A stretch of 64,000 nucleotides of DNA from Halorubrum salinarum (GCF_013267195.1 NZ_CP053941.1:2232001-2296000); one strand, 5' to 3'. Numbered from the stretch's first letter, positions 34,515-61,992 are shown. Translations and numbers: made by a program. Notes: a model not told the origin generated them from the sequence alone.

Positions 34515-35164
34515 TTCGGATCGGACGCCATATTAACCAGATGAATTTAAATCTCAGCCGAGAACCCGTCAGGAGCCGCCACCAGTCAGTCAGACAGAGC
34601 GAACCCCGCACCTGATCCCGGTTGACTGGTAGCCCGATCCGGTTCGACGAGTGAGTACCGCCCGGGATTCTAGGCTGTAGACCACGTTTTCTCGATCATG
34701 AAACCTATCGAATCAGGGTTTGAGTGGCTTCTCACCGCGCTTTTCCCGGAGTACGTGTCACCACACATGAAAAGTACAGAACTCGGTGCCGGGAGTCTGA
34801 TGCGTGGTGTGTGCCGGTGGCGCTAACTGCTGGAACACGATCTCTACAGAATCCGGTGCCGGGCGTCCGGTGGGTAGTGCGTACCGGTGGCACTGAGCGT
34901 TAGAACATGATCTCTACAGAATCCGGTGCCGGGTCGTCGAGACCCCTTACAAGATGTGCGAGGAACCACGGGGCCTAGCGGGAGCGGTACCGGGAAGACG
35001 ATTTGTTCCGAGCGGATTCCAGTTTGGCCGGGCCGGTTAGCGCTCCCATCGTTCGCGCGTCTTCGCGGTCGATCCGCCGCCGTACCGGGATTCGACCGAG
35101 ATCTCGGCGCGAGGTTTAGGGCTAACGTTCAAACGTCGGAGGTTCAAGTTAAGTAATTAGGCAA
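34515..35164. other. 650-base gap with tandem repeats and no supported gene
   Basis: The gap lies between the minus-strand integrase and the plus-strand methyltransferase. It contains the 70-bp tandem repeat at 34775-34933 and AT-rich boxes near 34531-34550 (for the integrase) and TTAAGTAATTA at 35150-35160. A 76-codon frame from 34926 lacks haloarchaeal composition and is not called. Confidence 0.5.
34775..34933. repeat. 70-bp tandem repeat, 2.3 copies
   Basis: TACAGAAYCCGGTGCCGGG occurs at 34775, 34845 and 34915, exactly 70 bases apart. Between the second and third cores the sequence is nearly identical to that between the first and second, including the CCGGTGGC and GAACA tracts. The units contain the short palindrome CCGG repeatedly. 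Positioned upstream of the methyltransferase, they may be iterons, regulatory sites or an attachment region. Confidence 0.75.
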
Positions 35165-50172: not shown

Positions 50173-51197
50173 CTACTCGCTAGAGGTCACAAACGTGGAC
50201 AAGCATCGACTCACCTTTGGTGGATCGTACACCTCCTCACGCTCCAGCATATGGAAGGTCGACACGAGCAGTTTTCGCGCCGTTGCGACAATCGCTATCT
50301 GGTGGTTCTTCCGCTGTTTCAACCGAGCGTAAAACCGCCCAAGGTACAGATCGTTACACCGATGAACCGCCGTTTGGACGCATTGGACGAGGATCCATCG
50401 TAAGTCTCCACTTCCTCGTTTCGAGATTGATCCTTTAGTCCGCGAGTCACCTGACTCGCGGACGACCGGATCCAATCCCGCGTAGCTCACTACCTGATTC
50501 GCCTCGTTGAACCGGTCGATCTCACCGATCTCCGAGGTGATCAGCAACGACGAGTAGAAACTCACGCCGGGAATCGTCATCAACCGCTGCGTCTCGTCCA
50601 GAGACGCAGCGGTCTCTTCGATCATCTCTTCGAGTTCCTCAATCTGAGCGGTGAGCTCGTCGATGATCGAGAGGAACGACTCCATCAACTGATCGCCGAC
50701 CACACCGAGGGAGAAATCCTCGCCGGCGAGGATTTCTCTCCCGTTCACGCTGAACGGATCCCAGTCGTAGGTGATCCCGTGTTTGTCGAGAACAGCGTGG
50801 ACTTCGTTTTTGAAATCCGTCCGCTTCTCGACTAGTCGCTCCCGGCCGCGCACGAGTGTGCGGCGCTCCCGGAGTTCTTCGGGCGGAACGTAACTCTCAG
50901 CGATCATGCCGGCTCGGCAAAGTTGCGCGAGCAACTTCGCGTCGAGCCGGTCGTTTTTCACCCCAGCATAGCCGATCGGCTTGGTTGGCTCGGCTCTGCG
51001 ACAACCACGTCGAGGGCGTCGTAGACCGTGTAGTAATTGCTGGTTGCTTCGATCGCCGCTTTGGCTCCAGCGTATTCTTCGGCGACTTCGTCAAGATTCG
51101 CGTTTGCGACGCGAATCTCTTCGACGACCTCGGCATCGTCGTCCAAAACAGCGACGTGCGACTCATCTTTGTGAAGGTCGATTCCGAGGTAGTACAT
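50173..51197 (-). pseudogene. IS110-family transposase, single-base frameshift
   Basis: The N-terminal frame starts MYYLGIDLHKDESHVAVLDD, the RuvC-like first DEDD strand, and loses meaning after AEPSQ near 50987. The downstream frame resumes KNDRLDAKLLAQLCRAGMIA and ends with the C-terminal MTIPGVSFYSSLLITSEIGE and YAGLDPVVRESGDSRTKG of IS110. A one-base deletion near 50987 would restore one reading frame of about 340 residues. IS110 elements lack terminal repeats, so the ends are not called. Confidence 0.85.
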
Positions 51198-51239
51198 GGT
51201 TCCTCTGGAGTGGGAAGTGCGTGAAGGGAGCCACACCTA

Positions 51240-52537: not shown

Positions 52538-53263
52538 TCACTGACGGTACTGAACCGGTCCGAGCCGCGTTACTTGCCCGTCTTCGACGAGTCGCACAAG
52601 CCCGTCTTCGGTCGGGAAGCCGAACGTCCCTGTTTCGACTGGGCGGCCCGGCGCGACACACCGAAAGTACGCGCCTTGCGGGTACTCAGCGAGGATCCGG
52701 CGTTGACACCCGGCGACATCGAACATCCCGAGATCGTACGCGCCGTCCCGCTGTGCGATCCGCGCCGCCCCACGCCGATACCCGAGCAGCTCCCGCGGCT
52801 CAAACTCCGTCATCGACTCCACGGGGAACGCATAGTTCTTGAACGTCACCGGATCGCCCAGCGACAACGTCTCGGCCACCGGGTCATACTCACCGAACCG
52901 GAACGGCGCTTGTAACTCCGGCGTCAACGCCTCACACGCGTCACGCATCCGGTCTCGATGCTCCGTGTGGAACACCCAGTGAACCACGAATCCCAAGCGC
53001 AGCGCTTCCCGCGTCTTCGCCCGGAACGGTTGGTCGGATCCAGCGACGAACTCAATCCACCGGTTCACGTCGCCCCCGATCACCGCACAGTCCGGAACGC
53101 GGTCAGCAACCGTCCGCTCAAACCGGTACTCACCGTGGAAGAACGGCTCGGTTTGCGCGCGGCGACGCCGCTCCAACTCTAATTTCGGCCAGAGATGCGC
53201 CCGCGACTCTTTCCCCGCGGTTCGGAATCCGTCGATGTCATCGGGGAAGTCGTCCGTACTCAC
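52538..53263 (-). CDS. CoiA-like nuclease-fold protein, last gene of the RAMP operon
   Basis: The 241-residue protein starts with KESRAHLWPKLELERRRR (E19, H23, K27), then RVPDCAVIGGDVNRWIEFVAG (D58, E71) and FRAKTREALRLGFVVHWVFH. This order matches the CoiA competence family, a PD-(D/E)xK-fold nuclease, with the residue after E replaced by V at the usual K/Q position, so catalysis is not certain. It lies 37 bases after the exonuclease gene. I read it as a nuclease partner of the RAMP proteins. Confidence 0.55.
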   Translation of the reverse strand: MSTDDFPDDIDGFRTAGKESRAHLWPKLELERRRRAQTEPFFHGEYRFERTVADRVPDCAVIGGDVNRWIEFVAGSDQPFRAKTREALRLGFVVHWVFHTEHRDRMRDACEALTPELQAPFRFGEYDPVAETLSLGDPVTFKNYAFPVESMTEFEPRELLGYRRGAARIAQRDGAYDLGMFDVAGCQRRILAEYPQGAYFRCVAPGRPVETGTFGFPTEDGLVRLVEDGQVTRLGPVQYRQ

Positions 53264-53300
53264 TGTCCATCACCCGCCGTCAACCGCGTTGCGTGCCGTG

Positions 53301-53957
53301 TCATGTGTCGGTCCGTGTCGGTGTTAGCGACTTCACGTCGAACTCTGATTTCGCACAGTACCGTTCCGCGAGCCGCCCGAGGCCACGCGTCCGCAGCACG
53401 TCCGCCACGTTATGCGCCGCGAGCGCCGCGAACCGCGCCTCCTCGAACGCCGTCACCGCCTCGCTACTCTCCGCGAACGGGTCGAGCTCACCGTACTCGC
53501 CGTCGCACAGCACGTCGTACGCAGTGTCGAGATCGTTGCGCGCGTCCCCGTCAACAGTCGTGTTGAACCGCTTCGAAACGACCGGCATGACGTCCGCGTA
53601 CGGCACCCCCGCGAACGCCCACGACAAATCAAGGCGCGCGAACCGCGTGCGGAGGAACGGCAGGTCAAACCCGCCGCCCCACCGTTCTCCGTTGTACGCG
53701 ACGAGCAACACGTCCGCGTCCCGGAACCGCTCCGCAACGAACCCGGACACGGCCGCTAGTAGGTCGTCCTCGGACGAGTGCGTCGACGCCTTCACGACCA
53801 CGTCGCCGTCGACCTCGTCGATACTAGGAGCGGCGCGGCCGCCCGTGTTCACGAACACGCGGACACCGAGCGGCACCGCGAACCCGACCACCGTGACGAC
53901 GTCATCCGCGTCGAACCCGGTCGTCTCGATATCGAACGGCACTTGCCGCAACGTCAC
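53301..53957 (-). CDS. DEDD 3'-5' exonuclease (RNase H-like)
   Basis: The 218-residue protein has a complete DEDD site: D9 and E11 in PFDIETTGF, D98 in AYNGERWGGGFDLPFLR, and H182/D186 in AAHNVADVLRTRG. It resembles the exonuclease domain of family B DNA polymerases and single-domain RNase H-like exonucleases. It overlaps the RAMP gene by four bases. In this operon it probably trims or cuts nucleic acid recognised by the RAMP complex; that role is inferred. Confidence 0.8.
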   Translation of the reverse strand: MTLRQVPFDIETTGFDADDVVTVVGFAVPLGVRVFVNTGGRAAPSIDEVDGDVVVKASTHSSEDDLLAAVSGFVAERFRDADVLLVAYNGERWGGGFDLPFLRTRFARLDLSWAFAGVPYADVMPVVSKRFNTTVDGDARNDLDTAYDVLCDGEYGELDPFAESSEAVTAFEEARFAALAAHNVADVLRTRGLGRLAERYCAKSEFDVKSLTPTRTDT

Positions 53958-54895
53958 GCCCCGTCACCCCCGGCGTCTGCCCGGCCCGGCACGCGCCGCT
54001 CACCAGCCGGTCTGACGCGGAACTCTCCGAATCCGTACTTCGAATGCGTTCCGACGCGACGCACGCCGTTCACCGCCGTCCGCACCGGCTCCGACCCAGT
54101 GTACGGAACAACTTGCCCGTGATCGATCGTGTCCACCACGTACACCTTGCCGTCATCGACGACGCGGGTGTCTCGCCGCCGCACCTCGTCATCCCCGACC
54201 TTCCACCACCACGGCACGTCCTGATCGTCCGCACCCGGGTACTCCGACGCGGTGACGAACGGCGTCACCAACTCAATCAAGCACGGCTCGCCGTCCCGCT
54301 GCGCCGCTTCCAACCGCGCGTAATCCAGGTCCGCTAACTCAACGACCTGCGTGTCCGCAACCGACAGTTCACCGAACCCGTAGTTCCGCGCAGCCCCGAC
54401 CTGGATCCCGTCAAGCACCGCGTCACTCAACGGAACCGTGTCACCGGCCCCGTCCACATGTACGTAGCAGTGCACGTACCACGACACGGACCGCCGCGTG
54501 TTCCGCATCTCCTCCGGCCGGCCAAACCACGACGTGTCAGCGTACGCCACGCGCCCACCGTGCGTCTGTACATCGTGCGTGTTCTGCGCATCTCGCGGCC
54601 TGGAATCCAGCATCCACCGGTGCGCCGGGTCACGGTACAGGAACAAGTCCTCGTACGCGTCCACCGTCGGGAGCGACCCGCCGAGCTTCCCCGCATACCC
54701 CGGCATCGAATGCGCGTCCGGATACTCACCGTACTCCTCCGGCACGAACACCCCGTGACTCACCCGCAATCGTCGCCGCGTCTCGTCATTCACGCGCGGC
54801 GCAATCGCGTTAAACAACGCGTTACCGCTCACAAAGTACGGGTGCCCCATGTACGGCCCCTCCAACGCGAACAACACCTGCTGAATCCGCGTCAC
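53954..54895 (-). CDS. RAMP-superfamily protein with two glycine-rich loops (Cas5/Cas6-like)
   Basis: The 313-residue protein has two glycine-rich loops typical of RAMP proteins: VGAARNYGFGEL at 166-177 and VGTHSKYGFGEF at 281-292. Two RRM-like halves each ending in such a loop are expected for a Cas5- or Cas6-type protein. A histidine (in RVSHGVF) might be catalytic in a Cas6-like role, but this is uncertain. The start is a GTG at 54895, and the gap before it (54896-55316) holds repeats. It overlaps the exonuclease gene by four bases. Confidence 0.65.
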   Translation of the reverse strand: MTRIQQVLFALEGPYMGHPYFVSGNALFNAIAPRVNDETRRRLRVSHGVFVPEEYGEYPDAHSMPGYAGKLGGSLPTVDAYEDLFLYRDPAHRWMLDSRPRDAQNTHDVQTHGGRVAYADTSWFGRPEEMRNTRRSVSWYVHCYVHVDGAGDTVPLSDAVLDGIQVGAARNYGFGELSVADTQVVELADLDYARLEAAQRDGEPCLIELVTPFVTASEYPGADDQDVPWWWKVGDDEVRRRDTRVVDDGKVYVVDTIDHGQVVPYTGSEPVRTAVNGVRRVGTHSKYGFGEFRVRPAGERRVPGRADAGGDGA

Positions 54896-55316
54896 GCGAC
54901 CAACCCCACGCTCCCACTAGAGACCGCCACACGTTCACACACCACACTACCAGCACCCCGCACCACACACCCCGTTTCCAGTGTTCTCCACGACGTACTC
55001 TCCCCGCGATCCACACACCCTGTTTCCAGTGTTCTTCGCCGACCCGTCACGCGATCCGCACACCTCGTGTCCAGTGTTCGCACCGTGTCTCGGTGGCAGG
55101 GTCGAAGCGGCACTCCCAACTGCGACCCGCACCACCGGTTTCCGAGCCGCGCACCGGCCCCGCGTCGTCCCACCACGAACAACCCGGCACCAAGCCCGCG
55201 GCCCGCGGCACACGCCCGTCGCGGCTGCGAGCCCACCACAACCCGCAGCCCCGACCCACGACCAGGTCGCCTCCCCAGGACCGCACCGCCCCGTCGACCC
55301 CGCCCACCCGCCCGGA
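54896..55316. other. 421-base non-coding gap inside the RAMP operon
   Basis: All other genes of this operon overlap or nearly touch, so this gap is exceptional. It contains three repeats (54963-55080) and a possible degenerate copy near 55124. It is C-rich on the plus strand, and I see no TATA box, so the two flanking genes probably remain on one transcript. A frame across it (minus strand) is rich in R, G and C and nearly free of D and E, so I do not call it a gene. Confidence 0.6.
54963..55080. repeat. three CRISPR-like 25-bp repeats with 23- and 20-base spacers
   Basis: Repeats start at 54963, 55011 and 55056. Each has a C-rich head (CCACACACCC) and the core TTTCCAGTGTTC or a close variant. 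Copies 1 and 2 differ at one position of 25; copy 3 differs from copy 2 at five. The spacers (54988-55010, 55036-55055) are not similar to each other. Copies 2 and 3 also share CGCGAT just before them. The repeat read on the operon strand could form a small stem (ACAC pairing with GTGT). Confidence 0.6.
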
Positions 55317-56183
55317 TCACCTCCCCACCCCGCCACGCACCGCAGCACCCACATCGCGCTCTACGACATCTTCCACGTACTGTAGCGCCGTCGAAAACGA
55401 CCGGACTCGCCGTAGTTGCGCATCCACCACGCGCAGCCACTTCCGCTCCAAATCCAGGGGCTCCGCCGACAACCGCGACCACGTATCCGCAAACGCCCGC
55501 GCCGGCCCCGCCCCAAGCGACGCCACCGCCCCCGTCGAAGGTGCGTCACCCGTCACGCGGACCGCCAGTTCAGACGTCCACAGCACCGTCCGGCACGGCA
55601 CCACCACTTCGGCGTCAAGCGCCGCCGCCACACGACCATCATCGCCGTCGCCAGTCGGCGGGCCGCGCGCCGGCCGCTCCGCCACGAGACAGAGATCCTC
55701 GAACGCGTGCCCCGCGCGGTAATTATCGAGCAGCGCCGCCACCAGCAACGTGTGGTACTTCAGTGACGTGTACGGGACGTACACGGACTCGTTGAACCGC
55801 GCCGCCACATCACTCGTCAACCACTCAGCGTGGAGTCGCGCCGGGTCCGAACACCCCGGCCTGACCAGCCCACGCACATCCTCCACAGACGCTGGCACCT
55901 CCCCGGGATCCGCGACCGTCGCCCCCGTCACCAGGGAAAGCCGTGCCGGCGACACGTGATTCGCCACTGTTTGCTCCGGCTCACCCGACGGCCGACTCAA
56001 CACCGCCGCATCCCCATCCGCACCGCACGGCACCGACTGATTCACCCGCACCCCGCACACCTCCCTGTCAGCCGACGCATGCCGCTTCCCGCGGAGCTTG
56101 TGCACGTCGTGCCGGAACGCCGCCACCAACCCGCCCGACTCACCATCACCACCAGGCACCTGAGCGGACTCCGACCCCGTCAC
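55317..56183 (-). CDS. conserved RAMP-operon protein, function unknown
   Basis: The 288-residue protein has a helical C-terminal half (DLERKWLRVVDAQLRRVRSF, then TALQYVEDVVERDV) and a small cysteine/histidine content in the middle. I recognise no motif. It sits between the small acidic protein gene (four-base overlap) and the repeat-containing gap. From what I recall of array-less haloarchaeal CRISPR relatives, they always contain one uncharacterised conserved protein next to the RAMPs; this could be it. Confidence 0.55.
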   Translation of the reverse strand: MTGSESAQVPGGDGESGGLVAAFRHDVHKLRGKRHASADREVCGVRVNQSVPCGADGDAAVLSRPSGEPEQTVANHVSPARLSLVTGATVADPGEVPASVEDVRGLVRPGCSDPARLHAEWLTSDVAARFNESVYVPYTSLKYHTLLVAALLDNYRAGHAFEDLCLVAERPARGPPTGDGDDGRVAAALDAEVVVPCRTVLWTSELAVRVTGDAPSTGAVASLGAGPARAFADTWSRLSAEPLDLERKWLRVVDAQLRRVRSFSTALQYVEDVVERDVGAAVRGGVGR

Positions 56184-56455
56184 GCCCCATCACCCGCGCC
56201 CGACTCGCCCTCGTCCTCACCCGACACCCTCTCACTTCGGCGCTCCCAGATACTCGCAGGCGTTTCCTGCACCGTCTCCGTCACCGTCGTCGGCGACTGC
56301 AGCTCATTCAACTCCCCGTCCACCCCCGCATCACTCTCGCCTTGCGCTTCCCACTCAATCGGGTCCTGCGCAGGATTCGTCGCCGTCGTCGGCGGCCGCG
56401 GCTCATCGAGATCAACTTCTTCATCCTTGCCGCTCGGCTCGTCCGAGTCCGTCAC
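56180..56455 (-). CDS. small acidic linker protein of the RAMP operon
   Basis: The 91-residue protein is nearly all acidic and disordered in appearance (SGKDEEVDLDEPRPPTT, then EGESGAGDGA). It overlaps the Cas7-like gene upstream and the unknown gene downstream by four bases each. Because of the tight coupling it is probably real, perhaps a small subunit or linker of the complex. Confidence 0.5.
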   Translation of the reverse strand: MTDSDEPSGKDEEVDLDEPRPPTTATNPAQDPIEWEAQGESDAGVDGELNELQSPTTVTETVQETPASIWERRSERVSGEDEGESGAGDGA

Positions 56456-57399
56456 GCCGACCCACCTCCCGGCACCGGTGAGTCACCATCACGCGCCGCC
56501 ACACGCGCCTGTAACGCCGCCACGAACTCCCCGCGGACCGACTCCCGCCACACATCATCCTTCCACTCCATCCCCGACGTCGCATCCTGCGCGCGATTAA
56601 ACACGCGCTTGATCTCCGCGTCCGAGTACAGCGGGTTGATGACGCGCGCATCAACCATGCCCGCCCCGAAATTCCGCGCCCCACCGAGCTGTAACTCGAA
56701 CTCGTTGCTGTGCGCGTCGAGGTAATCGACCGCCTCCACGAGCAGCCCAACGTACTCCGGTTTCAGTTCTCGAAGCGAGAGTTTCCACGTCCCCACGAGG
56801 TTCCCGACGACGTCCCGCGACGCCATCCGCAGCGGCTGCCCGTCATCCTCGCTGTTCCGCGAGCGGACCTGCGTGTTCAGTTGACGGTAGTGCGCCTCTG
56901 CTTCGCCTTGGAGCACGTCCACTTGCCTGCGGATCGGCGAGAACCCGATCGGTCTGCGGACGAGACGCCCCGCCCGGTCATTGAACCCACCGAACAAATC
57001 GTAGAGTACACACCCCTCGTCGCCATCCACACACGAGCCTTTCTCATGGTAGCCGGCATCGAGATCACGCTCGTACACGTCGTCAAGCATGTACTCCGCA
57101 TCCGCCGCACCCGGGTGGCACGCCGTGCCTCCCGCTGCCTGTACGACGCGTTCACACCCGTGCCGCAACCACCCCGACAGTGGGAACGGCGACACCATGC
57201 CCCCGATTTGGTTCTGCGGGTCGTCGGCCTCGTACCGGTCAGCCGAGGCGTGGTGTCTGTCCGTGACAATCCCGTCGCCCGGCGCGAGCAGTGGGATTTC
57301 AAGCCCCACGTACACATCCGGGAGTGTGAGATCGTCTACGTCGTCCGGGAGTGTGAACTCGTAATCGAGGTGCTCCGTTTCAAACTCCGGCACCATCAC
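56452..57399 (-). CDS. Cas7/Csm3-like RAMP protein
   Basis: The 315-residue protein has three Csm3/Cas7-family features: a PLSGWLRHGCERV segment like the serine-glycine-arginine motif of Csm3 and Csf2, a CVLYDLFGGFNDRAGRL segment like the cysteine-LFG motif of that family, and a late glycine-rich loop LGGARNFGAGM (238-248). These suggest a backbone subunit that binds a guide or target RNA. It overlaps both neighbours by four bases. No signal or membrane segments. Confidence 0.7.
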   Translation of the reverse strand: MMVPEFETEHLDYEFTLPDDVDDLTLPDVYVGLEIPLLAPGDGIVTDRHHASADRYEADDPQNQIGGMVSPFPLSGWLRHGCERVVQAAGGTACHPGAADAEYMLDDVYERDLDAGYHEKGSCVDGDEGCVLYDLFGGFNDRAGRLVRRPIGFSPIRRQVDVLQGEAEAHYRQLNTQVRSRNSEDDGQPLRMASRDVVGNLVGTWKLSLRELKPEYVGLLVEAVDYLDAHSNEFELQLGGARNFGAGMVDARVINPLYSDAEIKRVFNRAQDATSGMEWKDDVWRESVRGEFVAALQARVAARDGDSPVPGGGSA

Positions 57400-57893
57400 C
57401 GCCCACCCCCACCAGCCCGCATGTGCTCACAAACAGCCGTCAGGAGTGAAGTCGGGCCATCACGATGCTCATCCGTCTCAGCACTCTCAGTGATCCCGTC
57501 ACGCGACGCATCACCCACCGCACGAGCCGCACTCGACGACGCCGCACTCACCACCACCAGCGACGGGTCAACCAGCACCAACCACGACGACTGCGTCGCA
57601 ACATCCGTACAGAGACCGATCCTGCCCGTGACGACCAGTTCATGAACACCACGCGTAAACACCGACGGGTGTTCGTGTTCATCCGCCCCGCACATCACGA
57701 ACCCAATTTCAAAAATCGGGTTGCCAGCCGCCCGGAAGGCATACGCCGTTACGTCGTCGCCTTCCCCGAGTCCGCAGCCGCACACCTGACACATCGCGGC
57801 CCCTTCCCCGAGCGCATATTTTTCTAACTGGTATATAGCTTCAATAAACTGTTCACCGATAGTCTCTTGCCATTTCGGATTTGACTTTACCAT
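57396..57893 (-). CDS. zinc-binding first gene of the RAMP operon
   Basis: The 165-residue protein has C35, C38 and C40 in MCQVCGCGLG, then C68, H73 and H75 in VMCGADEHEH, which could build a zinc finger, and a long low-complexity C-terminus. Type IV CRISPR systems carry a similar zinc-finger protein (Csf1), but I cannot show homology. It is the first gene after the structured leader and the operator. Start is ATG 57893. Confidence 0.55.
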   Translation of the reverse strand: MVKSNPKWQETIGEQFIEAIYQLEKYALGEGAAMCQVCGCGLGEGDDVTAYAFRAAGNPIFEIGFVMCGADEHEHPSVFTRGVHELVVTGRIGLCTDVATQSSWLVLVDPSLVVVSAASSSAARAVGDASRDGITESAETDEHRDGPTSLLTAVCEHMRAGGGGR

Positions 57894-57914
57894 GGGATTC
57901 TCACGTCCGTGGGA

Positions 57915-57981
57915 AGCCCAGCCCGGGTGTCACTACCACCCAGGCATTCGTTGGATCGTTACGCCCCGTCGGGGCTGGGCT
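57915..57981 (-). promoter_or_regulatory. foldable leader RNA of the RAMP operon
   Basis: On the operon strand the outer arms AGCCCAGCCC (57972-57981) and GGGCTGGGCT (57915-57924) are exact complements. Inside them lie a small hairpin (GGGTG 57925-57929 with CACCC 57937-57941) and, competing with the outer arm, GCCCC-GTC-GGGGC at 57963-57975. Given a TATA box near 58005 the transcript would begin about at the outer arm, so an 85-base leader would be structured. Confidence 0.55.
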
Positions 57982-57991
57982 CCACATCCAT

Positions 57992-58033: not shown

Positions 58034-58327
58034 ATGGAGGTTGAAATACCGTCAGGACTAATCAGTGTGACCGAAAACAGGAGAATAATGCCTGGCCGTG
58101 ACGAAGAAACAGGGCGATATACCGGTCAGTACCCTACTGACGATTTTCTTAATGCTATTGATGAAGAAGGAGGAATGGCCGGTACCGGTGAGATTGCGGA
58201 CCACGTAGGCTGCGCGCACGACACGGCGTATAAGCGGCTTCAAGAGCTTGAAAAAGAAGGAATGATCTCTTCTCGTAAAATGGGCAACACGCTACTGTGG
58301 GAGAGGAGTAGAACAAAAGAAAACTAA
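58034..58327 (+). CDS. winged-helix HTH regulator divergent from the RAMP operon
   Basis: The 97-residue protein begins MEVEIPSG and has a helix-turn-helix: GTGEIADHVGCAHDTAYKRLQELEKEG (about 50-77). It resembles small MarR/ArsR-like haloarchaeal regulators. The ATG at 58034 lies about 28 bases after the TATA box, giving a leaderless mRNA; an in-frame ATG at 58088 is an alternative. The operator palindrome overlaps the box, indicating autoregulation and control of the divergent operon. Confidence 0.75.
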   Translation: MEVEIPSGLISVTENRRIMPGRDEETGRYTGQYPTDDFLNAIDEEGGMAGTGEIADHVGCAHDTAYKRLQELEKEGMISSRKMGNTLLWERSRTKEN

Positions 58328-58363: not shown

Positions 58364-59725
58364 CTACCTATTTAGCACGTTCTTTAGAATTCCGGGCAGT
58401 TCCTCACTGAGTTCCCCTGCCTGTAGAATGGTTATTGGCTCGTCTACCTGTGCGTCTACGGACAGCGTCTCCCGATCAAGGTCCTGTACGACAAGGAGGC
58501 CATTCCACCCGTTGCCGAAGATATCTGCCTCACCAGTTGTGTCTCGCCCGAACACGTAGTCTTCGTTGATTCGGAGGAAGGCGAGGTATTCGAGGGTCTC
58601 TTTGATTCCAGTTCGGATTGTTTCTTCGCGGGTACTATGCTTCACTTCGGCAATGAGGTATTCGTACGTGATCGGTTCGTCGGATTTGACTTCGAGGACG
58701 ATAACGTCGGGACGGCCCGTGTGATTCTGGAAGTTCTTCTCGAAGTACGTGCTGGCGACGTCGCGTGCGGTTTGTTGGACGTGCTCAGCACGAGTTGGCT
58801 CTCGGCCGTCTGGCGTCGCTTCTGTGCGGAAGGAGAGGCCGCGGTTGCTGGCGGATGTGTCGTGGTATAGCACGATCTCTTGCTCGCCGTCGATCTTGGC
58901 GACTTCTTGGCGTCCGCTTTTGATTGTTTGAAAGACGGGCTGTGTGTCTTGTAGGTCTTCGAGCGTGGTGATGAATCGGAAGAGGACATAAAGCTCGAAG
59001 AGTCGGGCTTGGTCGTCTGGGGTGATGGCGGTTTGACTCAATAGTGTACGTAGCGCATCGGGGTTGCCGTCGAATAATTCTTGACGGGCGCGGAGAAGCG
59101 TGGCGGCATCGCGGTAGATTTCTTGTCGGGAGTTGGCGGCGGTGGTGAGCATGCGTTCGGTTGGTTCGTACGTTTCTGGGTCGCGGATGCGGCGGACGTG
59201 GACGTTGCGTTCGACGGTGCGTTGTACCTGGTCGATGAGGTCGGTGTTAGCTTGCCACCGGTCGGTGACCCAGTCGTAGTTGCCTTTCAGGTACTCGTCG
59301 GCGTCGCGCAGCGTTGTGTAAATAACGGAGAGGAGGCGTTTGAGGACGATGTTTTCGGGGATGTTGTAGTCTTCGGACCGGTTTTCGGTGACGAACAGCG
59401 ACCGGTCGTTCGGGTTGGTGGAGTACCGGGCTTTGACGGTTGAGCCCCAGTTGATGTGCCCGTCAATGCCACCGCGTTGGGTGCGGGCGACGGTTTTCGT
59501 TTCGGTGCGGACGTTTCGCAGGCGTTGTGAGAGTTGCTCGACGAACTCGACGACGTCGGGTTTGAGGATGAAGTGTAGGTCGAGGAGGAGCTCGTAGTCC
59601 TCGAAGCGTTGGTCGAGCGCTTCGGGTTTGATCGAGGCAGCGAGTTCTCGTTTGGGGAACCCGCCGTTCATGACGTACGCGAGGATGTCTTGGGTGAGCC
59701 CGTCGATGAGGTCCTCGCGGTTCAT
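58364..59725 (-). CDS. McrC-like PD-(D/E)xK restriction nuclease subunit
   Basis: The 453-residue protein has the nuclease core D340 in GRPDVIVLEV and E360/K362 in LIAEVKHS, with RLFELYVLFRF (about 241-251), the McrC/DUF2357 motif, before it. The N-terminal 200 residues are helical. In the McrBC type IV restriction system this subunit cuts DNA next to modified bases. It overlaps the McrB-like gene by four bases. Confidence 0.8.
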   Translation of the reverse strand: MNREDLIDGLTQDILAYVMNGGFPKRELAASIKPEALDQRFEDYELLLDLHFILKPDVVEFVEQLSQRLRNVRTETKTVARTQRGGIDGHINWGSTVKARYSTNPNDRSLFVTENRSEDYNIPENIVLKRLLSVIYTTLRDADEYLKGNYDWVTDRWQANTDLIDQVQRTVERNVHVRRIRDPETYEPTERMLTTAANSRQEIYRDAATLLRARQELFDGNPDALRTLLSQTAITPDDQARLFELYVLFRFITTLEDLQDTQPVFQTIKSGRQEVAKIDGEQEIVLYHDTSASNRGLSFRTEATPDGREPTRAEHVQQTARDVASTYFEKNFQNHTGRPDVIVLEVKSDEPITYEYLIAEVKHSTREETIRTGIKETLEYLAFLRINEDYVFGRDTTGEADIFGNGWNGLLVVQDLDRETLSVDAQVDEPITILQAGELSEELPGILKNVLNR

Positions 59726-61992
59726 GACTCAGTCTCTGTGTCGATCGTGACTTGGAGCATGTCGCTCGCAGCGGTTCTGAGCGTGTCGGTGTCGGTTGCG
59801 TCGACGGCTGCGATGTGCGTGATGATTTGCTTGCGTTCCGGGACGCCTTCGAGCTGCGGGAAGATGTAGCTGATAACGGCCTCGGTGACGCGTTCAGACA
59901 GGTCGTCTGTCGCGGAGGTGCGGCGGTTCGTGACGTACGTGAGCATGTCGCGGACGATTGCGGGGCCGATCGACCGGTCGTCAACGGCTTGGTTCGTCTG
60001 CTTCCACACTTGCCCAATCGCGTCGCGTTCCTCGTCGCTCGGGTCAAGCCCGTCCCACGCGTCGATGTACGCGTTCATCTCGGTCGTCAGTTCAGTACGT
60101 GCGGTGTCGTCGTCGCTGGTGGTGAATTCTGGTGCGGGAACGCGGATGAATGCGAAGCGCCGCATGAACGCGTAGCTCATTTCGTACAGCGAGGTTTTGT
60201 CGTACGTGTTCATGGTGGCGAAGATCCGCCAGGAGTCGGGGACGACGTACTGGTGTTCAGCGGGGAGGCCGTCGAGGTGGTCGGTGGTGAGGAGTTCGAT
60301 TTCGCGGTTATTTCGCGTGAAGGGGAGTTGAACGGATTGACCGGAGAGCAGCGTGAATAACTGGCCGAAGGCTTTGTCGATGTCGGCGCGATTCAACTCG
60401 TCGATGATGACGGGCTCGTTCGATTGAACGCCGGTCCGCGTGTCTTTGAGCCGATTGAGAATGATGCCGGGGGTGAACGCGAGATCGGAGTCTGCGTTGT
60501 CGCCGCCGGTCTCGGTCGGCATGTACCCGCCGACGGTGTCGAACGTGGACCAGTCAGCGGTCGCCGTGGTGAGTTCAGATCCGGAGTACAGGTGCGGGTA
60601 CGCGTCAGCGAGGTACGTGGCGACGCGTTCTACGATCTCGGTTTTCCCGGTGCCGGGTGGGCCGGTTAGGATGATGTGGTCGCCGGCGAGGAGTGCGGCT
60701 TCGATTTGTTCGATGATGGTTTCACCCAGCTCATCCGGGAAGTATAACCCATCAAGGAGTGACCCTGTGTCGAGATTCCCAGTAAACGGTTTGTGGATCG
60801 CAACCGGGGGGACCTCCTTGAGGTGCGCTGTGATAGCGTTCACGAGTGTACGGCCAGGTTCCGAGTCGGCCGTTGTATCGAGTGGCTCCTGGATACGGTG
60901 GCGAGGAAAGCCAGCTTCTGTGGTCTCATTACAGATTGTGTCCGCTGTCTCGAAGGACATTCCGTTAGCTGTCAGAGCTGTGAGATTGTCGTTCGCCTCC
61001 GTGGTGTCCTTGCTCAGGATGGATCGTGAGAAATCGATGTCCTCGATATCCCCAGTAGCGTAAAGTCGGTCAAACGTCACAAGATAGGGGAACGACTGAT
61101 CTTTTGGCGAATTGGGTCGCTCATCGTACCACCAGGATTCGTCTTGGGGCTTGGTCGTCAGCGCACCGATGATGCCTACACCGAGAATACAGCTTGCTTG
61201 TTCGTCGAGCGCCTCCCGCGCTGGCTCGCTGCGAGAGTGGAAGAGCACGATGTCACCAGGCGACAGATCCACCCACAGTCCGTGATCGGATTCCCCGAAG
61301 GCGAATGCTGCGTATTCGAAGGTTGTGAGCCAGCTGTCCGGTGGTGCCGTCAGTTTGTAGATGCGGGCATCTGTCTCCTGAATGTACACCGCAAGGGGAT
61401 GATCGGGATCGATTCCATCTTGCTTGTAATTGCGTCCCTCGATCTCTTTTTTTTCGGGCCAAATGGAGGAATCGTCCTCATCGCTGGACTCCCTCGAATT
61501 TTCGAGTCGTGTACGGACGGCTTCCGTAACACTGTCGTGTTCTAAGAGTCCGTCGATGTACGTCTGCTTGTACTCGGGAAAGAGATTGACAACATTTCGC
61601 GTGGCGAGCGTTTTCACCGCTTCGAGATTGGCGTTAGACACTTCCGCGAATCGCTCCCAATTCTCTCGGTATATCGAATTAAATTCATCTTGGACAGTAT
61701 TACAGAAGACAATCCACTCGAAGTCATAACCGGGGACTGAATGAGATGTTTTGTCCGCGGGAACAATTTCTCTTACTTCGAAGACTGCTCCAATCCCAGA
61801 GTCGTCTGAGACGATCCGCGCCAGGACAGTATCTCCTTCTCGAAAGTCATCCGGTGACAAGCCGTCTGTATCCGTGAAGCCGAATCGGGGAGTGACATCT
61901 TCGTCACCTTCGTCACCGGCCTTGTGACCGAGACAATCGTCCCAAACTTCTGAATCGATATTGAAAACCCAGGTATCTGTATGACGAGTCAT
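59722..61992 (-). CDS. McrB-like AAA+ motor with EVE/PUA-like N-terminal modules
   Basis: The 756-residue protein has the AAA+ core of McrB: Walker A GPPGTGKT (444-451), Walker B VIIDELNRAD (528-537) and the MNTYD (594-598) signature. Before it lie two EVE/PUA-like modules, about residues 8-110 (WVFNIDSEVWDDCLGHK) and 205-335 (DSWLTTFEYAAFAF, GDIVLFHS), which probably read the modified base in place of the usual DNA-recognition domain. It drives the McrC-like nuclease. Confidence 0.85.
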   Translation of the reverse strand: MTRHTDTWVFNIDSEVWDDCLGHKAGDEGDEDVTPRFGFTDTDGLSPDDFREGDTVLARIVSDDSGIGAVFEVREIVPADKTSHSVPGYDFEWIVFCNTVQDEFNSIYRENWERFAEVSNANLEAVKTLATRNVVNLFPEYKQTYIDGLLEHDSVTEAVRTRLENSRESSDEDDSSIWPEKKEIEGRNYKQDGIDPDHPLAVYIQETDARIYKLTAPPDSWLTTFEYAAFAFGESDHGLWVDLSPGDIVLFHSRSEPAREALDEQASCILGVGIIGALTTKPQDESWWYDERPNSPKDQSFPYLVTFDRLYATGDIEDIDFSRSILSKDTTEANDNLTALTANGMSFETADTICNETTEAGFPRHRIQEPLDTTADSEPGRTLVNAITAHLKEVPPVAIHKPFTGNLDTGSLLDGLYFPDELGETIIEQIEAALLAGDHIILTGPPGTGKTEIVERVATYLADAYPHLYSGSELTTATADWSTFDTVGGYMPTETGGDNADSDLAFTPGIILNRLKDTRTGVQSNEPVIIDELNRADIDKAFGQLFTLLSGQSVQLPFTRNNREIELLTTDHLDGLPAEHQYVVPDSWRIFATMNTYDKTSLYEMSYAFMRRFAFIRVPAPEFTTSDDDTARTELTTEMNAYIDAWDGLDPSDEERDAIGQVWKQTNQAVDDRSIGPAIVRDMLTYVTNRRTSATDDLSERVTEAVISYIFPQLEGVPERKQIITHIAAVDATDTDTLRTAASDMLQVTIDTETES

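What the first reader, a model, noticed from the sequence alone, without database searches (positions are those of the whole stretch)
52538..57893. CRISPR-derived RAMP operon (HRAMP-like) in a haloarchaeon
Seven minus-strand genes lie almost end to end: zinc-binding protein, Cas7/Csm3-like RAMP, small acidic protein, unknown protein, second RAMP with two glycine-rich loops, DEDD exonuclease and CoiA-like nuclease. No Cas1, Cas2, Cas10 or Cas3 is nearby. I recall that haloarchaea carry a derived class 1 CRISPR relative with diverged Cas5 and Cas7, one uncharacterised protein and varied nucleases but no array (named HRAMP). This operon fits; its nuclease pair (DEDD plus CoiA-like) may be a distinct variant.
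Basis: partly seen in the sequence, partly recalled or inferred. Interest (0 to 1): 0.85.

Follow-up and report, generated by a model that had tools for sequence, protein, structure and literature searches.

The report
CRISPR-derived operon with hidden RNA elements
This salt-loving archaeon carries an HRAMP operon, a stripped-down relative of type III CRISPR thought to have no RNA array, and the operon holds two conserved RNA/DNA elements that nobody seems to have described: a switch-like leader RNA, and a translated but peptide-neutral stretch whose repeats copy the binding sites of replication initiators.

Summary
The seven genes are real and the locus is an HRAMP. B is a Cas7 and E a Cas5/Cmr3-type RAMP. 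D, the 'unknown' protein, models as a miniature Cas10, so 'no Cas10' was wrong. F is a DEDD exonuclease. G replaces an HNH nuclease in 9 of 38 related loci; its CoiA identity is unconfirmed. 'End to end' hid a 421-nt gap between D and E, filled by an eighth ORF (H) coupled by 4-nt overlaps to both neighbours. Across haloarchaea H stays open and changes only by multiples of three. Yet substitutions fall equally on all codon positions, and its 18-nt repeat (CACTGGAAACNGGGTGTG) lies in all three frames, so selection acts on the nucleic acid. H carries hairpins with variable stems and an invariant GUGGUG loop, plus repeats that match origin recognition boxes (ORBs) of Orc1/Cdc6 replicons. The operon starts with a three-way-junction leader RNA whose outer stem can instead pair with the sequence before the start codon. 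It recurs in both HRAMP clades and outside HRAMP, and is not in Rfam. The HRAMP identity and the elements are well supported. Their mechanism (ORB-mimicking RNA ligand, DNA-level initiator site, or autoregulation) is not.

The parts
57891..57985 (-). Leader RNA: three-way junction ending at the ATG of A; the 3' strand of its outer stem can also pair with the tail before the ATG (two-state switch)
   Evidence: Covariance model R2 hit 66.6 bits, E 9e-17; one copy in own genome; covariation; alternative pairing; no Rfam match
57396..57893 (-). Gene A, 165 aa, cysteine-rich N-terminus (CQVCGCG...MCG), probable zinc-binding accessory protein
   Evidence: ORF; homologues in most clade-1 loci; no Pfam hit
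56452..57399 (-). Gene B, 315 aa, Cas7-like RAMP (glycine-rich GGARNFGAG)
   Evidence: Homologues hit Csm3 and Pfam RAMPs; AlphaFold2 model matches Cas7 of types III, VII, IV
56180..56455 (-). Gene C, 91 aa acidic protein with a repeated short linear motif
   Evidence: ORF; detectable homologues only in two close Halorubrum relatives
55317..56183 (-). Gene D, 288 aa, reduced Cas10-like protein with HD-type motif RHDVHK
   Evidence: AlphaFold2 pLDDT 85; Foldseek 48 of 50 rows are Cas10/Csm1/Cmr2, best E 7.5e-3; VIA Z 12.6 over 241 residues to Csm1; invariant R24, H25, H28, K29
54892..55320 (-). Gene H, 142-codon translated but peptide-neutral ORF; overlaps the stop of D and the start of E by 4 nt each; carries RNA hairpins and ORB-like repeats
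55223..55250 (-). Hairpin with 11-bp stem and GUGGUG hexaloop (type 2 element)
55164..55183 (-). Hairpin with 7-bp stem and GUGGUG hexaloop (type 2 element)
55059..55076 (-). ORB-like repeat 1, CACTGGACACGAGGTGTG (degenerate)
55014..55031 (-). ORB-like repeat 2, CACTGGAAACAGGGTGTG
54966..54983 (-). ORB-like repeat 3, CACTGGAAACGGGGTGTG
54900..54924 (-). Terminal degenerate copy of the element just upstream of the start codon of E (approximate limits)
   Evidence: consensus CAGTGGAAACGNNGGGGTG upstream of E in most clade-1 loci
53954..54895 (-). Gene E, 313 aa, Cas5/Cmr3-like RAMP with two glycine-rich loops
   Evidence: All 16 aligned homologues hit PADLOC Cmr3 models, best 3.3e-7
53301..53957 (-). 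Gene F, 218 aa, DEDD-type exonuclease
   Evidence: Pfam RNase_H_2 7.3e-6, above the curated cut-off
52538..53263 (-). Gene G, 241 aa, putative nuclease with invariant E71...K83; takes the place of an HNH nuclease
   Evidence: Present in 9 of 38 clade-1 loci, HNH in the other 29, never both; no profile hit

Best explanation
The operon encodes a reduced type III-like RNP: D (mini-Cas10), B (Cas7), E (Cas5/Cmr3), with the nucleases F and G as effectors. It is switched on through a two-state leader RNA. Ribosomes run from D through H into E, so H must stay open, but its peptide does not matter. What matters is the H segment as RNA. Its GUGGUG hairpins are protein-recognition or processing sites. 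Its ORB-like units are fixed, genome-encoded sequences that the RNP carries and that match origins of Orc1/Cdc6-dependent replicons. The RNP would recognise such origins of invading plasmids or viruses and bring the nucleases to them: innate origin recognition in place of spacer-based immunity. Shown by computation: gene identities (HRAMP identity about 0.95), frame maintenance with a neutral peptide, nucleotide-level conservation of both elements, the ORB match and the leader structure. Inferred, not shown: RNA binding by the RNP, processing of H, origin targeting, nuclease action. The confidence given is for this RNA-level origin-recognition mechanism.
For: Cas7/Cas5 identity. Cas10-like D. 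H open in the coupled frame in 22 of 25 gaps. Substitutions by codon position in H 200/210/218 against 203/151/644 in E, and all 17 H indels multiples of three. Repeat used in three frames. All 58 repeat copies in the sense orientation, with no ordinary antisense copy in clade-1 loci. Hairpins: 19 of 58 GTGGTG sites in H have stems of 7 bp or more, 0.03 expected, 0 of 674 outside H; covariation 0.92 against 0.28 shuffled. H folds more stably than D or E (mean z -2.8 against -0.3). ORB match: closest other copies in the own genome lie at oriC1 beside orc1; all 3 haloarchaeal plasmid matches of one unit lie beside Orc/Cdc6 genes. McrB-like neighbour fits a defence island.
Against: ORBs are known DNA sites of Orc1/Cdc6, so a DNA-level role needs fewer new assumptions. 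The type 1 repeat itself shows no RNA covariation. The units differ from each other mainly outside the ORB core, and no spacer matches a virus or plasmid. Some clade-1 loci and all clade-2 loci lack the array, so it is not essential to HRAMP. No Cas6 was found and no RNA data exist.
Confidence: 0.33

Rival explanations
1. The repeats act as DNA. Orc1/Cdc6 initiators, above all those of invading plasmids, bind the ORB-like sites inside H. This titrates the initiator like decoy iterons, or senses it by blocking or changing transcription into E-F-G.
For: Units are nearly indistinguishable from origin ORBs; one unit matches a plasmid origin ORB at 28 of 30 nt, where the ORBs form a direct-repeat array about 41 nt apart upstream of an Orc gene.
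Against: All 58 copies point the same way, while origins hold both orientations; no AT-rich unwinding region or Orc gene adjoins the array; the hairpins stay unexplained.
Confidence: 0.3
2. H and the leader are autoregulatory: the RNP or a free subunit binds its own mRNA (GUGGUG hairpins, GAAAC-type motifs like a crRNA 5' handle) and tunes translation of A and E. The ORB likeness is incidental or ancestral.
For: Elements sit directly upstream of A and E start codons; the leader has a mutually exclusive pairing before the ATG; repeats contain UUGAAAC or UGGAAAC, like type III 5' handles (handle consensus from memory).
Against: The ORB match covers about 18-28 nt, far more than a 5-7-nt handle; the leader also occurs outside HRAMP, so its ligand is probably not the RNP.
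Confidence: 0.22
3. HRAMP borrows crRNAs in trans from ordinary CRISPR loci. H is only a linker that keeps D and E translation coupled, and its repeats are residues of an old insertion.
For: Subtype III-G is thought to use crRNAs in trans (PMC12669027); several clade-1 loci do without H.
Against: Repeats and hairpins diverge about 2-3 times more slowly than the rest of H in most pairs that carry them and recur across many genera.
Confidence: 0.1

Closest known systems
HRAMP (haloarchaeal RAMP), PMC8730458 and PMC12669027
   Same: Haloarchaeal Cas5 and Cas7 homologues with extra nucleases (HNH commonest), no CRISPR array, closest to type III
   Different: D is recognised here as Cas10-like; the H segment and leader RNA are not mentioned in the held texts; in this variant G replaces HNH
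Type III-H, III-G and III-I CRISPR-Cas (PMC12669027)
   Same: Reduced Cas10 without active polymerase; in III-I the Cas10 was found only by structure comparison; III-G has no array
   Different: D is smaller (288 aa); no Cas11 or Cas7-11; fixed ORB-like repeats in the operon
Haloarchaeal Orc1/Cdc6 origins with ORBs (PMC3528665)
   Same: Repeat core CAC(T/C)NGAAACNNGGTGTG with G-rich end
   Different: Direct repeats inside a coupled ORF, all in sense orientation, no adjacent orc gene

Membership tests
HRAMP | Cas7 homologue | tested here: met
HRAMP | Cas5 homologue | tested here: met
   all 16 homologues hit Cmr3 (Cas5 group) models; no structure predicted for E
HRAMP | Associated nucleases (HNH or PD-(D/E)xK typical) | tested here: met
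   DEDD F; HNH in 29 of 38 sister loci, G in 9; fold of G untested
HRAMP | Restricted to haloarchaea | tested here: met
   78 of 79 loci haloarchaeal or uncultured-archaeal records; one contig labelled Elusimicrobia MAG, probably misbinned
HRAMP | No CRISPR array or adaptation genes | tested here: met
   searches find no classical array; no Cas1/Cas2 among profile hits of the operon; an ORB-like array is present instead
Type III CRISPR-Cas | Cas10 large subunit | tested here: inconclusive
   Fold-level match of D; no sequence-profile hit; no GGDD motif seen
Type III CRISPR-Cas | crRNA guide | not testable with these tools
   needs RNA co-purification
Orc1/Cdc6 origin (ORB array) | ORB core sequence | tested here: met
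Orc1/Cdc6 origin (ORB array) | Inverted ORBs and adjacent orc/cdc6 gene | tested here: not met
   all copies same orientation; no orc gene near clade-1 arrays: the only clade-1 hit, L121, has no array
CoiA-like nuclease (gene G) | Match to CoiA profile | tested here: not met

The most novel reading that the evidence does not exclude
An array-less CRISPR derivative turns out to carry a built-in, fixed RNA programme: a miniature type III effector guided by ORB-mimicking RNA taken from a translated, peptide-neutral ORF in its own mRNA, and aimed at replication origins instead of recorded spacers.
Probability: 0.2. Interest if true: 0.97.

Novelty: new variant of a known kind. Interest (0 to 1): 0.8.

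Why it matters
HRAMP is regarded as an array-less, guide-less orphan of type III CRISPR, so how it could recognise anything is open. A Cas10-like subunit, a conserved RNA/DNA element tied to replication origins and a switch-like leader give direct, cheap tests: pull down the complex and sequence its RNA, or recode the repeats. Even if the guide idea fails, a translated ORF conserved only at nucleotide level, and a haloarchaeal leader RNA class absent from Rfam, are unusual in themselves.

Tried and rejected
Classical CRISPR array in the D-E gap: rejected, spacing irregular (33-142 nt), repeats short, no protospacers in viral contigs, phages or plasmids. H as an ordinary conserved protein: rejected, repeats lie in three frames and codon positions evolve alike. 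H as untranslated RNA: disfavoured, indels in threes and the frame stays open. Type 1 repeat as an RNA hairpin: its CAC/GTG arms do not vary, so covariation is silent. Leader RNA as an HRAMP-specific guide: weakened, since it also precedes SWIM-finger genes elsewhere. First leader model R1 was built on a misaligned 5' half and discarded. Similar hairpins elsewhere in clade 2 or H-less loci: no recurrent loop found. HRAMP in IMG/VR: none found. Third repeat type in the Halorubrum kocurii group: 100-nt imperfect repeats, no informative plasmid match.

Full report
OBSERVATION. The seven minus-strand genes are at the stated coordinates. Close relatives keep the order A-B-(C)-D-E-F-nuclease. E has homologues in 28 of 97 related genomes and B in 27. 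A scan of GTDB species gave 111 relatives of E, 79 loci kept. They fall into clade 1 (this operon, with F) and clade 2 (about 50% identical, B-D-E only), separated with full support in the E tree.

GENE IDENTITIES. E: every one of 16 homologues hits Cmr3 models, best 3.3e-7. B: homologues hit Csm3 (1.6e-6) and Pfam RAMPs (8 of 15); the window protein alone hits nothing. Its AlphaFold2 model (pLDDT 70.7) matches only class 1 CRISPR Cas7-type subunits among the 50 listed rows (best E 1.5e-6; Z 9.8). D has no sequence hit, but its model (pLDDT 85.3) matches Cas10/Csm1/Cmr2 in 48 of 50 Foldseek rows. The E-values are weak (best 7.5e-3); Z is 12.6 over 241 of 288 residues. R24, H25, H28 and K29 are invariant and D26 nearly so, which recalls the Cas10 HD motif. 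I see no GGDD motif, so cyclic oligoadenylate synthesis is unlikely. The operon is thus a reduced type III-like effector, in line with published statements that HRAMP derives from type III (PMC12669027). F is a DEDD-type nuclease. After F come either an HNH protein (29 loci) or G (9, window included), never both. The CoiA label for G found no support.

THE H SEGMENT. D and E are 421 nt apart. Of 25 clade-1 gaps longer than 100 nt, all end in an RTGA overlap with E. In 22 the coupled frame is open throughout, with per-locus Markov probabilities of about 0.0015-0.3. In 9 close pairs (not all independent), substitutions by codon position are 200/210/218 in H but 203/151/644 in E, and all 17 H indels are multiples of three. 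So the frame is kept while the peptide drifts. The repeat CACTGGAAACNGGGTGTG lies in frame 1, 2 or 0 in different lineages. 25 of 28 start-to-start spacings are multiples of three; the three exceptions are one shared 142-nt spacing in related loci. Within 79 loci its sense copies lie in this gap except for one 3-mismatch hit, and only in clade 1. Inside repeats and hairpins divergence is about 2-3 times lower than outside in most pairs that carry them. Nucleotide-level selection on a translated but peptide-neutral ORF is my inference from these facts.

HAIRPINS. GTGGTG flanked by stems of at least 7 bp occurs 19 times in 8 loci; the shuffled expectation is 0.03, and none of 674 GTGGTG sites outside H does so. 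Twenty distinct hairpins show 94% paired cells and covariation 0.92, against 0.28 shuffled and at most 0.19 for slid versions. The hairpins were selected for pairing (at least 5 bp), so one search is the fairer test. H folds more stably than its shuffles (window z -4.4; mean z -2.8 for 15 H genes against -0.3 for D and E). Loci with type 1 repeats alone mostly do not.

ORB MATCH. In the own genome the closest other copies are at oriC1 beside orc1. Units and origin ORBs share the core; oriC1 boxes have a TTT flank, HRAMP units a purine flank, like boxes beside plasmid Orc paralogues. A Halovenus-type unit matches a Haloarcula plasmid origin at 28 of 30 nt (E 5e-4). All three haloarchaeal plasmid hits of that search adjoin Orc/Cdc6 genes. 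The other plasmid hits were Sinorhizobium at E near 1, i.e. chance. All 58 copies are in the sense orientation.

LEADER RNA. Upstream of A lies a three-way junction ending at the ATG. Model R2, built on six sequences, finds it in the window (E 9e-17), in nearly every clade-1 locus with an intact 5' end, and in clade 2 (five loci at E below 1e-11). 15 of 23 pairs change on both sides against 6.4 in shuffles, though that alignment is fitted to the model. The 3' strand of the outer stem pairs with the tail before the ATG better than with permuted tails (5.86 against 4.93 +/- 0.12, 0 of 500): a two-state switch. Rfam has no match. The family extends beyond HRAMP: 38 of 97 genomes, often before small SWIM-finger-like proteins. 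It is therefore probably a general haloarchaeal regulatory leader and not an HRAMP guide.

MECHANISM. I favour an RNA-level role of H in a type III-like RNP that recognises Orc1/Cdc6 origins (0.33). The close rivals are DNA-level initiator binding (0.30) and autoregulation (0.22). The sense-only orientation and the hairpins speak for RNA; the economy of ORB = Orc site speaks for DNA. Nothing here measures binding.

NOVELTY. HRAMP is known. Cas10-like D, H and the leader are not described in the papers I could read; the 2020 classification paper is not held, so priority is unverified.

Noticed in passing
window 58364-61992 (-): McrB-like AAA protein (756 aa) and a 453-aa partner directly upstream of the HRAMP operon: probable type IV restriction pair, so a defence island.
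   Followed up: partly
window 58034-58327 (+): Divergent 97-aa winged-helix protein (weak FaeA/IclR-type hits), possibly the operon's regulator; inverted repeats at the promoter.
   Followed up: partly
L241-L255: The leader RNA family also precedes small SWIM-finger-like genes in HRAMP-free loci; L252 has a second gene weakly like protein A.
   Followed up: partly
L233:6608 and L233:6656: Two direct copies of CACTGGAAAAACGGTGTG exactly 48 bp apart in an intergenic region of a Halorubrum genome (G032) with no detected B or E homologue; may be an unannotated replicon origin.
   Followed up: partly
G066, contig C1: Besides one intact locus, about ten short fragments of E (mostly its C-terminal 40-60 residues) are scattered over the chromosome.
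   Followed up: no
G056, contig C3: CGCTGGAAACAGGGTGTG occurs six times dispersed over one chromosome; the E copy there is broken by stops.
   Followed up: no
window 50173-51236 (-): Two overlapping ORFs look like one frameshifted IS110-type transposase (by eye, untested).
   Followed up: no
window 34775-34938: Tandem repeat of 70-nt period, 2.3 copies, 81% matches.
   Followed up: no
L123:6457-6709: Halorubrum kocurii group: H carries a different, roughly 100-nt repeat and folds well, but has no GTGGTG hairpins or type 1 units.
   Followed up: partly
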